DNA from: Methylorubrum populi
GTDB taxonomy: Bacteria > Pseudomonadota > Alphaproteobacteria > Rhizobiales > Beijerinckiaceae
Reading direction: 5' to 3'
Assembly: GCF_002355515.1 (NCBI RefSeq)
Contig: NZ_AP014809.1
Span: 5,170,501 to 5,234,500, forward strand
DNA: 64,000 bases
Numbering within the stretch: the stretch's first letter is position 1; every line of letters begins with the position of its first letter. Positions 36,942 through 59,630 of the stretch are shown here, one piece after another. The notes beneath the pieces are model-generated. The model made no database searches, had not been told where the DNA came from, and saw only the letters and a program-made list of their open reading frames with translations. A program made the position numbers and the translations under genes.

Positions 36942-36993
36942 TTTCCTTCACCCCATCCTCGACCCTGCGCGACGCGAAAAGACCCCGGCGACC

Positions 36994-37815
36994 ATGTGCG
37001 AACTGCTCGGAATGAGCGCGAATGTGCCGACCGACATCCGGTTCTCCTTCGCGGCTTTGGCCCGGCGCGGCGGCGAGACCGGGCCTCACGCCGACGGCTG
37101 GGGCATCACCTTCTACGAGGGACGCGGCTGCCGCTCCTTTCACGATCCGGAGCCGAGCGCCCGTTCCGAACTCGCCAAGCTGCTGCGCCGCTATCCCATC
37201 AAGAGCCGCATCGTCGTCGCCCATGTCCGCAAGGCCAATCGCGGGCGCGTCAGTCTCGAGAACACGCACCCCTTCTCCCGGGAGCTGTGGGGCCGGCGCT
37301 GGACCTTCGCCCATAACGGCCAGCTCAAGGGCGTGAAGCGGCTGCCGCTCGGCCGGTTCGAGCCGGTCGGCACCACCGACAGCGAGCACGCCTTCTGCTG
37401 GATCCTGTCCCAGCTCCAGGAACGGTTCCCCAAGCCGCCCCGTGCTGCCACCCTCGAGGCGGCGATCGCCGGCTACGCCCTCACTCTGTCGGAGCTCGGC
37501 GTGTTCAACATGCTGCTCACCGACAGCCGCGTGCTCTACGCGCATTGCGGCAAGCGGCTCTGCTATCTCACCCGCCGGGCGCCGTTCGGAACGGCGACGC
37601 TGATCGACGAGGATTGGCGGGTCGATTTCGCGCAGGAGACCACCGAGACCGACATCGTCACCGTGATCGCCACACGGGCGCTGACCCGGGACGAGACCTG
37701 GACCGAGCTGGAGCGCGGCGACACCCTGGTCCTCACCGACGGGGCGGTGCGGGTGCTGAAGGGGAAGGCGCGGCGCCGGCCACAAACGGAGCCGGAGATG
37801 CGCGGCGCGGCGTGA
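36994..37815 (+). CDS. class II glutamine amidotransferase (YafJ-like)
   Basis: 273 residues from the ATG at 36994, which puts the N-terminal nucleophile Cys at position 2 (MCELLGMSAN) after removal of Met. Other class II glutaminase features: RRGGETGPHADGWGI, VVAHVRKANRG, NTHPFSRELWG and WTFAHNGQLKG. It lacks a synthetase domain, as YafJ and EgtC do, so the amide acceptor is unknown. It starts 52 bases after the ActF-like gene and may be in the same transcript. Confidence 0.9.
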   Translation: MCELLGMSANVPTDIRFSFAALARRGGETGPHADGWGITFYEGRGCRSFHDPEPSARSELAKLLRRYPIKSRIVVAHVRKANRGRVSLENTHPFSRELWGRRWTFAHNGQLKGVKRLPLGRFEPVGTTDSEHAFCWILSQLQERFPKPPRAATLEAAIAGYALTLSELGVFNMLLTDSRVLYAHCGKRLCYLTRRAPFGTATLIDEDWRVDFAQETTETDIVTVIATRALTRDETWTELERGDTLVLTDGAVRVLKGKARRRPQTEPEMRGAA

Positions 37816-37957
37816 GACCGGGGGCCCGCGCCCCGGGACTGTGCGGTTGATCTGCCGCATTCATGCCGCAGGTTCGACGGATCATTCCATGCCAGATCCG
37901 ATTGATCCCTTGCGGGAGGACTGGATTCGGACGTCGTTCGAGCGCCGCGCGGGCCGA

Positions 37958-37998
37958 GCGATACGGTTTTCGCTCGGATCGGGCGGAAACCGTATCGC
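37958..37998. repeat. REP-like palindrome
   Basis: Perfect 12-base arms GCGATACGGTTT (37958-37969) and AAACCGTATCGC (37987-37998) around a 17-base spacer. There is no T-tract, so it is not a standard terminator. Its composition resembles dispersed palindromic elements of Methylobacterium genomes. Confidence 0.7.
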
Positions 37999-38022
37999 CC
38001 TTCACAGTGGCCCTTCACAGTG
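37997..38022. repeat. 13-bp tandem duplication
   Basis: GCCCTTCACAGTG occurs twice in a row (37997-38009 and 38010-38022), directly abutting the palindrome and overlapping its last two bases. Confidence 0.9.
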
Positions 38023-38182
38023 TGCCGATCGTCTTGTGTGCAAGCGTGGCAGTATTTCGCGCGGCGCGGGTGTGCGGTGCGGGGCCGATGCGCTACAACT
38101 ATGTTAAATGCCCCGCCGGGGCGGTCTCCGCGTGCCGTGCCGCCCCGCCGATTGCCGAAATGCCCCGATCGCGAAGTACCCG

Positions 38183-38917
38183 ATGCGCAACGATGCCGAA
38201 GCGACCCTGGATCGTCCCGCGATGACAGACGGCCGTCCGAAACTCTCCGACTCGATCCGGAGCCATCTGGGTGATCACCTTCGCAGCGTCTACGACACGC
38301 TGGGCGCGGGCGAGGACACACCGGTCCGCTTCTCCGAACTGATCGGCAAGCTCGAAGCGGCCCTCAAGGCTCAGGGTGAGCGGGTCGATCCCGAATTCCG
38401 CAACGGCCTGCTCGCCGCGGTCCCGTCCCTGCGGGCCTTCGCCCTGTCGCTGACCTCGAACCCGGCCCGTTCCGACGACCTCGTGCAGGACACCCTGCTC
38501 AAGGGATGGCAGCACCGGGCCCGCTTCCAGCCGGGCACGAACCTCAATGCGTGGCTCTTCACGATCCTGCGCAACATCTTCTACTCGGACCATCGCAAGC
38601 GCGTCCGCGAGGTCGAGGATCAGGACGGCTCCTATGCTGCCCGCCTCGCTACCGCGCCGCATCAGGGCGACCGGCTCGACGTCGAGGATCTGCAGACGGC
38701 GCTCGCCAAGCTGCCGCCGGACCAGCGCGAGGCGCTGGTGCTCGTTGGCGCCGAGGGTGTCTCCTACGAGGAGGCCGCCACGATCATGGGCTGCAAGGTC
38801 GGCACGGTGAAGAGCCGCGTCAGCCGCGCCCGCGGCCGCCTCGCCGAACTCCTCGGCTACGACGAGGAGGATCTCTCCTCCGACCGCTTCATCCAATCGG
38901 CGATGCCGGACGCCTGA
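38183..38917 (+). CDS. EcfG-type general stress sigma factor with N-terminal NepR-like domain
   Basis: 244 residues from the ATG at 38183 (GAAG upstream); ATG 38222 is an alternative that keeps all domains. Residues about 20-65 read SIRSHLGDHLRSVYDTLG then PVRFSELIGKLEAAL, closely matching the NepR anti-sigma pattern (LxxxLRxVYD...PxRFxxLLxxLE). The rest is an ECF15/EcfG sigma factor: region 2 LRAFALSLTSNPARSDDLVQ and GTNLNAWLFTILRN, region 4 LAKLPPDQREALVLVGAEG and GTVKSRVSRARGRLAELLG. EcfG drives the alphaproteobacterial general stress response and is normally held by a separate NepR until PhyR-P removes it. No PhyR gene is in the window. Fusion could give self-inhibition or a scaffold; this is inference. 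Confidence 0.85.
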   Translation: MRNDAEATLDRPAMTDGRPKLSDSIRSHLGDHLRSVYDTLGAGEDTPVRFSELIGKLEAALKAQGERVDPEFRNGLLAAVPSLRAFALSLTSNPARSDDLVQDTLLKGWQHRARFQPGTNLNAWLFTILRNIFYSDHRKRVREVEDQDGSYAARLATAPHQGDRLDVEDLQTALAKLPPDQREALVLVGAEGVSYEEAATIMGCKVGTVKSRVSRARGRLAELLGYDEEDLSSDRFIQSAMPDA

Positions 38918-39239
38918 TCGTCTTAAGGACAGCGCGGACCCGGTCCTCAGAGAGCCGGGTCGTTCGCGAAAGGCACCTGCCCGCCGCTCCTCTGCCAGCG
39001 TGCGGGATTCGTTAAGGAGACGCCGCGCCGCTGACGATGTCGCCGCCGGCCGGTCGCGTCATTTCCTCCGGCGCGATTGGCGGAAGGGCCAAATCGCCCT
39101 GACAGAGCGGCCCGAGCGGGAGTGGAGCGGACTTCCGGCTGCTCGTCGCTTGCGTCACAAGCCGGTTCGGCCGAACCGGCAACCGGTCTTCGGGCCGACC
39201 GACAGGGACGGAGAGCCCTGTCGGTTCGAGCCTTGGCTG
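38918..39239. other. 322-bp intergenic region between convergent genes
   Basis: Lies between the sigma factor (plus) and a MucR gene (minus). Repeated short GGTTCG/CGAACC-like runs near 39155-39235 may form structure, but no standard terminator was found. Confidence 0.4.
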
Positions 39240-39776
39240 TCAGGCCGCCTTGCGACGGCCGCCGGTCTTGCGTCCCTCACCCGAAGCGGTGCTCTTCCGG
39301 CGCGGCTCAGGCGGCGCTTCCGCGACCACCTCGTCCACGGGCTCCGCAGCCTTGGCGGAGGACTTGCGGCGCTGCTGGCCGAGGCCGAGATCCTTCGCCA
39401 GCGCCGAACGCGCGGCCGAATAGTTGGACGAAACCGTCGGATAGTCGGCCGGCAGACCGTAGCGACGGCGATAACCCTCGATGTCGAGACCGTGCGTCGT
39501 CAGATGCCGCTTGAGCGTCTTGTAGGGCTTGCCGTCGATGAAGGAGATCAGGGCGTCCGGCGTGATCGACTTCTTGATCTGGGCCGGCGTCGCCCGCTCG
39601 ACTTCTTCTTCCTTCGGGGCCTGCGGCGCCGACAGAGAGAGGAGCGCGGCGTGAACCTGAACAATCAGGGCCGGAAGTTCGGGCGATGGCAGGGAATTGT
39701 TCGAGACATAAGCCGAGACGAGATCGGCAGCGAGTTCGATACGATCGTGTTGCGAGACCTGACTTGTTTCAGACAT
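39240..39776 (-). CDS. MucR/Ros-family transcriptional regulator lacking zinc ligands
   Basis: 178 residues. Helical N-terminal oligomerisation region (ELAADLVSAYVSNNSLPSPE), then the Ros/MucR DNA-binding domain SFIDGKPYKTLKRHLTTHGL continuing YRRRYGLPADYPTVSSNYSA and LGLGQQRRK. In classic Ros two cysteines precede the histidines of the zinc finger; here these positions are Ser-Phe-Ile-Asp, so zinc binding is lost, as known for some Mesorhizobium paralogs. The tail is basic and low-complexity. MucR proteins silence AT-rich promoters and control surface polysaccharide and cell-cycle genes. The upstream region is AT-rich, consistent with autoregulation. A paralog lies at 55537-56067. Confidence 0.93.
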   Translation of the reverse strand: MSETSQVSQHDRIELAADLVSAYVSNNSLPSPELPALIVQVHAALLSLSAPQAPKEEEVERATPAQIKKSITPDALISFIDGKPYKTLKRHLTTHGLDIEGYRRRYGLPADYPTVSSNYSAARSALAKDLGLGQQRRKSSAKAAEPVDEVVAEAPPEPRRKSTASGEGRKTGGRRKAA

Positions 39777-59307: not shown

Positions 59308-59630
59308 GACGCGATGGGGACTCGAAGGCGCATGATGTGCGGTACTGAGAAGCACCCCCGCAGGGACCTGCCATTGGGCACAGCCCCGTCGATGCAGGAT
59401 CGGCGAGGGGCAGGTGCGAGGTGCTTCGGACGATGAGAACGCCGCCTTTCCGCCCCGGTTCCGCGGATTTCGGCTAGAAATTAAACATCATGCCTGTGGA
59501 TTAATCACGACTGGTCTTGTCTGTGCTTTTCCGAACACGGCGCGTGCTGCATTCCGATTATGGACCGGTCGGGCGTGGGCGGACGTGAAGACCGTGGCCC
59601 TCCGAGCGTGCCGGTGATAGAGGGCGCTCC
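59308..59630. other. 323-bp intergenic region before prmA
   Basis: Carries the prmA promoter region. A locally AT-rich patch at 59478-59520 is a likely promoter position. No repeat, RNA gene or hairpin recognised. Confidence 0.45.

What the first reader, a model, noticed from the sequence alone, without database searches (positions are those of the whole stretch)
38183..38917. NepR-like anti-sigma domain fused to an EcfG sigma factor
The sequence shows one uninterrupted frame whose first ~65 residues match the NepR pattern and whose remainder is a complete ECF15 sigma factor. In the canonical general stress response NepR is a separate protein that is displaced by phosphorylated PhyR. A fusion means a 1:1, intramolecular anti-sigma, or a domain reused as a PhyR or NepR decoy. 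I recall that Methylobacterium has several EcfG and NepR paralogs and cannot exclude that this fusion is already described.
Basis: partly seen in the sequence, partly recalled or inferred. Interest (0 to 1): 0.75.

Follow-up and report, generated by a model that had tools for sequence, protein, structure and literature searches.

The report
NepR-EcfG sigma factor fusion (EcfG1)
A stress-response sigma factor of a Methylobacterium relative really does carry a piece of its own inhibitor (NepR) at its front end, but this fusion was already described in 2016; what the extra piece does is still unsettled.

Summary
In detail: 38183-38917 (+) is one open frame of 244 aa. Residues about 19-62 are a NepR-like two-helix segment; residues about 69-230 are an ECF15/EcfG sigma factor. 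Pfam NepR scores 22.3 bits (cut-off 25.7) on the window protein, but up to 44.3 bits in fused relatives. The start at 38183 is kept in 80 of 80 orthologues examined, so the segment is translated. This gene is most likely EcfG1. Added here: nepR lies just upstream of ecfG in 43 of 44 unfused relatives examined; the fused copies are compatible with one origin; conserved helix positions of free NepR are kept, while its PxPD loop is lost and the segment evolves fast. Best reading: a NepR-derived lid over the sigma factor's NepR-binding face (published: only truncated EcfG1 binds NepR in vitro). Whether it inhibits the sigma factor or binds PhyR is unknown; AlphaFold2 did not settle docking.

The parts
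38183..38917 (+). fused EcfG gene (EcfG1-type), 244 aa plus stop
   Evidence: start conserved in 80 of 80 orthologues
38183..38236 (+). variable N-terminal tail, residues 1-18
   Evidence: dN/dS 0.72 for residues 2-18; low pLDDT
38222..38224 (+). second in-frame ATG (Met14), possible start of a short isoform that still contains the NepR-like segment; present in 13 of 80 orthologues, the Methylorubrum-like group
   Evidence: M. extorquens EcfG1 has a second isoform from a second start, PMC4814048
38237..38368 (+). NepR-like segment, residues 19-62 (Pfam match at residues 26-60 = 38258-38362; predicted helices at residues 23-41 and 46-63)
38369..38386 (+). short junction, residues 63-68
38423..38608 (+). 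sigma region 2 (Pfam PF04542), residues 81-142
38687..38842 (+). sigma region 4 (Pfam PF08281), residues 169-220

Best explanation
This is EcfG1, the general-stress-response sigma factor of a Methylorubrum/Methylobacterium species. It arose when nepR ran into the ecfG gene that normally follows it. The NepR-derived two-helix segment has kept the conserved helix positions of NepR and lost the PxPD loop. It most likely acts in cis as a lid that packs on the sigma factor's own NepR-binding surface, so that free NepR must compete for the site and the sigma factor is gated rather than silenced. Shown here: the fusion, its conserved start, its homology to NepR, a history compatible with one origin, and the kept helix positions. 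Shown by others: only EcfG1 lacking the extension binds NepR in vitro and in two-hybrid. Inferred: the fusion step, docking in cis and gating.
For: Profile matches. A NepR match lies just upstream of ecfG on the same strand in 43 of 44 unfused relatives examined; it ends 8-59 nt before the sigma start in 41 of the 43 (119 and 146 nt in the other two), and 9-15 nt before it in 24 of 28 fused copies with a profile hit. The loci are not a random sample: several were fetched because a stop interrupted the match. Tree of 96 sigma domains: one fused clade is not rejected, p-AU 0.602. Column entropies of 24 helix positions, free NepR against the EcfG1 extension: rho 0.56, reached by 24 of 10000 permutations, and 0.07 or less when the register is shifted by 1-3; the free-NepR invariants G, L and Y of helix 1 and the near-invariants R of helix 1 and R, F, L, L of helix 2 stay invariant or nearly so. 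Truncation-dependent NepR binding: PMC4814048, passages. Complementation: section part.
Against: Two AlphaFold2 models give the two helices but no NepR-bound arrangement of the sigma domains (pTM 0.46 and 0.47; TM-score 0.46 by target length to 5uxx_A, rmsd 14.8 and 14.6 A). dN/dS of the segment is about 12 times that of the sigma part (0.465 against 0.040), and its core differs more than that of free NepR in the same genomes (mean 0.352 against 0.208; 18 of 21 pairs, 7 genomes). Both EcfG1 isoforms do pull down NepR in vivo according to PMC4814048, so the lid cannot be tight in cells. The branch that unites the fused rows without L128 has bootstrap 50 (SH-aLRT 99).
Confidence: 0.45

Rival explanations
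1. The segment is a PhyR-binding handle. Phosphorylated PhyR binds the NepR-like helices on the sigma factor itself, which gives PhyR direct control over EcfG proteins that do not bind NepR.
For: Conserved NepR helix positions are kept. PMC4814048 says that EcfG2 should be controlled by PhyR through an unidentified mechanism, and that two NepR homologues bind PhyR but were not found to bind any EcfG.
Against: The PxPD loop of the 26 free NepR sequences used (Asp in 25, Glu in 1) is lost. No co-precipitation of PhyR with an EcfG is reported in the parts of the paper that I saw. Not tested here.
Confidence: 0.2
2. It is a relic: a co-translated leftover of nepR that no longer has a regulatory role and is lost slowly.
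For: dN/dS 0.465 against 0.040 in the sigma part; more different than free NepR in 18 of 21 genome pairs; PMC4814048 says that its role is not known.
Against: Kept in 80 of 80 EcfG1 orthologues, in 25 of 25 sampled genomes of the window's genus and in diverged fused paralogues, with a loose helix-1 motif in 40 of 45 (motif chosen after seeing the sequences). Core positions do not vary. Removal changes NepR binding (PMC4814048).
Confidence: 0.25
3. A classical intramolecular anti-sigma: the segment keeps the sigma factor off until it is displaced.
For: Domain make-up; homology to NepR.
Against: In PMC4814048 EcfG2 looks constitutively active and EcfG1 isoforms complement. AlphaFold2 shows no NepR-bound arrangement, which is weak evidence.
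Confidence: 0.1

Closest known systems
EcfG1 of Methylobacterium (Methylorubrum) extorquens AM1, and the NepR-like N-terminal extension of its EcfG proteins (PMC4814048, 2016; first noted in its reference 4, which I did not see)
   Same: Same architecture; a second start codon in the tail; not beside phyR (here phyR and a free nepR sit side by side elsewhere in the genome); EcfG1 is the one EcfG that the paper finds in all Methylobacterium it considered.
   Different: No difference found, but the AM1 sequence itself was not compared. AM1 has six EcfG proteins; this genome has three frames with such an extension, the third (L003) weakly alike.
Canonical nepR-ecfG operon with phyR (general stress response of Alphaproteobacteria)
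   Same: Same two modules in the same order.
   Different: Here one polypeptide; the PxPD loop of NepR is lost.
ECF sigma factors with fused regulators (IutY, ECF243, and some ECF36 members, fused to anti-sigma factors; ECF41 with a fused regulatory domain), from passages of PMC8999054 and a title
   Same: A sigma factor carrying a regulatory module in the same chain.
   Different: Here the module is N-terminal, has no membrane segment and derives from NepR.

Membership tests
ECF15 / EcfG sigma factor | sigma regions 2 and 4 with EcfG-type sequence | tested here: met
   Pfam r2 and r4_2; NCBIfam PRK12547 232.9 bits over cut-off 219; best PDB match 5uxx_A, E 7.2e-52, the RpoE of an RpoE-NepR co-crystal. 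That RpoE of this organism is EcfG is recalled
ECF15 / EcfG sigma factor | encoded beside nepR and phyR | tested here: not met
   phyR (Pfam PhyR_sigma2, PhyR_sigma-like and Response_reg) and free nepR lie at about 3.44 Mb of contig C1, this gene at 5.21 Mb. The paper reports the same for M. extorquens. The feature is general in the family, not universal
ECF15 / EcfG sigma factor | recognises EcfG-type promoters | not testable with these tools
   needs transcription assays
NepR anti-sigma family | profile match to PF18557 | tested here: met
   22.3 bits alone, below the 25.7 cut-off; 26.2 with its neighbours in the genome search; fused relatives up to 44.3 bits. Weak on the window protein, clear through relatives
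NepR anti-sigma family | two-helix core with the conserved positions of free NepR | tested here: met
   predicted helices 23-41 and 46-63; conserved columns
NepR anti-sigma family | PxPD loop between the helices (taken from the 26 free NepR here, not from a published definition) | tested here: not met
   Asp in 25 and Glu in 1 of 26 free NepR; S, N, T, A or V in 48 of 50 distinct EcfG1 rows
NepR anti-sigma family | binds and inhibits EcfG; is bound by PhyR~P | not testable with these tools
   needs binding assays

The most novel reading that the evidence does not exclude
The fused NepR-like segment turns the three-protein partner switch into a two-protein one: PhyR~P opens the sigma factor directly by taking the segment off it in cis, without free NepR. 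This would explain the unexplained PhyR control of EcfG2-type proteins.
Probability: 0.15. Interest if true: 0.7.

Novelty: already known. Interest (0 to 1): 0.33.

Why it matters
The fusion itself is in print, but its role is an open, directly testable question in a model host of this stress response. The history and residue pattern found here (neighbouring nepR and ecfG joined, conserved helix positions kept, loop lost) say which residues to mutate first.

Tried and rejected
Translation starting downstream of the NepR-like part: rejected. The ATG at 38183 is matched in 80 of 80 orthologues, and 40 of 81 sequences (80 plus the window) have no ATG, GTG or TTG between the NepR core and the sigma start; 12 of 81 have an ATG there.

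An EcfG-type promoter upstream: none found. The pattern GAAC-N16/17-SGTT has 2 matches in the window, overlapping on opposite strands at 59437-59461, against 3.77 expected. No sigma-70-like promoter or terminator was found at 37750-39100.

Fusions outside the family: two candidates in another family (G354, G307) have nepR and ecfG in different frames. No other uninterrupted match reaching into the NepR part was listed outside the family among 397 order-level genomes (the list was cut at its best rows) or 289 class-level genomes (strict cut-off 1e-57). Distant fusions may be missed.

The domain-only protein search (residues 14-66) returned 5 of 56 candidates. VIA-align rows cover mostly residues 61-229, so the fold of the segment was not compared with solved NepR. 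One search aligned only 16 of 81 extensions because the loop was set too long, and gave rho 0.43, with the loop length freed, matched 81 of 81 and gave 0.56. The 26 free NepR rows were strong Pfam hits, which favours conserved columns. In one search one of 8 genomes (G162) was left out because its free NepR did not fit the pattern. Papers looked up by id and not held: PMC3361459, PMC3361416, PMC5760481, 10.1073/pnas.0810291106, so no published NepR contact list was available.

Full report
What is there. The frame at 38183-38917 (+) is intact and encodes 244 aa. Pfam finds NepR at residues 26-60 and sigma regions 2 and 4 behind it. On its own the NepR score is just below the curated cut-off (22.3 against 25.7 bits), but the same family search over 22 related genomes finds frames at 44.3, 37.6 and 33.5 bits that one search shows to be fused. 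The closest solved structure by sequence is 5uxx_A, the RpoE chain of the Bartonella quintana RpoE-NepR co-crystal (title).

Is the NepR part translated? The 80 loci kept of 91 found in named genomes are all titled Methylobacterium, Methylorubrum or MAGs of their family. All 80 have an ATG aligned with 38183 within 3 columns, and 40 of 81 sequences have no start codon between the NepR core and the sigma part. The second ATG (38222, Met14), seen in 13 of 80 loci, the Methylorubrum-like group, would make a shorter protein that still holds the NepR core. It parallels the two isoforms published for M. extorquens EcfG1 (PMC4814048), although that paper counts 14 missing residues and here it would be 13. 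Together with its presence in 25 of 25 sampled genomes of the window's genus this points to EcfG1, the only EcfG that the paper finds in all Methylobacterium it considered. The AM1 sequence itself was not compared.

Already known. PMC4814048 (seen here: passages, the first of three parts of the Results, sections 22-26) states that the EcfG proteins of M. extorquens AM1 have an N-terminal extension of about 55 aa that resembles NepR, suggests an ancient fusion, gives Methylobacteriaceae as its range and says its role is not known. Proteins of that kind named Microvirga are in the protein search (P0044 with both Pfam domains; P0088 aligned over 93% of the query), and Microvirga belongs to that family in NCBI's taxonomy, so the published range holds. 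NCBI records already name several of these sigma factors 'NepR family anti-sigma factor'. Seven other library searches (listings only, listing 20 of 57 and 20 of 42) and passages of PMC8999054, PMC8103513 and PMC12148442 showed no further work on this fusion.

Origin. Of the 44 unfused relatives used in the tree, 43 have a NepR match just upstream on the same strand. In 8 of these it is in the same frame, separated by a stop; in the rest it is in another frame. The 8 were fetched because the genome search had shown a stop inside the match, so they do not measure how common this is. In one relative (L134) a single TAG and then an ATG divide the two genes. Of 52 fused copies scanned, 28 still match a NepR profile built from 26 free NepR sequences (20 of them at E under 0.01, the weakest at 0.11); the others, among them the two paralogues L002 and L003 of this genome, were classed as fused by the look of their extension. 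In a tree of 96 sigma domains (52 fused, 44 unfused) the best tree needs two changes, with one fused row (L128, genus g36) apart; a tree holding all fused rows together has a log-likelihood 3.41 higher and is not rejected (p-AU 0.602). Without L128 the fused rows are one side of a branch with weak bootstrap (50, SH-aLRT 99). So one origin is compatible, not proven. Fused copies were found in 25 of 25 genomes of the window's genus g1 and in at least 17 of 23 genomes of genus g32 with a listed match; that g32 is Microvirga is an inference.

What was kept. Comparing 26 free NepR with 50 distinct helix pairs from 81 EcfG1 sequences, the free-NepR invariants (G, L and Y of helix 1) and near-invariants (R of helix 1; R, F, L, L of helix 2) stay invariant or nearly so. 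The rows were cut out with a pattern that asks for several of these letters, but it matched 81 of 81, so no row was lost to it. Column entropies agree at the right register (rho 0.56; 24 of 10000 permutations) and not at shifts of 1-3 (0.07 or less). The Asp of the PxPD loop is lost. That the kept positions form the contact face of NepR is recalled, not tested. At the same time the segment changes fast: dN/dS 0.465 against 0.040 in the sigma part (400 random pairs of 81 sequences; a simple method and possibly saturated dS, so only the contrast is meant), and its core differs more than free NepR in 18 of 21 pairs among 7 genomes.

Structure. Two AlphaFold2 models (the window protein; P0044, a Microvirga relative) both give two helices in the segment at moderate confidence, with pTM 0.46 and 0.47. 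The sigma regions match ECF structures one by one, but not in the NepR-bound arrangement (TM-score 0.46 to 5uxx_A, rmsd 14.8 and 14.6 A). Cis docking is therefore neither shown nor excluded.

Reading. The kept helix positions, together with the published finding that only truncated EcfG1 binds NepR in vitro, make a cis lid over the NepR site the best single reading (0.45). A relic (0.25), a PhyR handle (0.2) and a full self-inhibitor (0.1) remain.

Noticed in passing
L014/L290 = G000:C1:2931314-2931832 (+), outside the window: A NepR-like segment joined to a receiver domain in one frame (P0122, 173 aa: Response_reg E 1.7e-12, NepR E 1.3e-4 but below its cut-off). Of 99 family genomes searched, nearly full-length uninterrupted matches in 4 of 4 of the window's genus (own included) and in G077 of another genus; in G036 the match holds two stops. 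Possibly a second kind of NepR fusion; not seen described in the parts of PMC4814048 read or in the listing.
   Followed up: partly
window 37958-37998: A strong hairpin with 19-bp arms upstream of the gene, without a terminator-like T run; its arm pattern occurs nowhere else in the genome, and an exact 13-base arm pattern was not found beside the gene in the orthologous loci.
   Followed up: partly
L134 (G036:C1:1403711-1414361): nepR and ecfG in the same frame with a single TAG and then an ATG between them, as a fusion precursor or a reversal would look.
   Followed up: partly
L243, L245, L246, L247: Some genomes of the window's genus also hold an unfused ecfG with its own nepR upstream; the four form their own clade in the tree.
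   Followed up: no
P0007, P0010, P0011, P0037, P0044, P0060, P0061: NCBI records name these fused sigma factors 'NepR family anti-sigma factor', which hides the sigma part.
   Followed up: no
window 36985-37812 (+) and 39243-39776 (-): Neighbours of the gene: a class II glutamine amidotransferase (GATase_4, E 6.4e-105) and a ROS/MUCR-type regulator (E 3e-41).
   Followed up: partly
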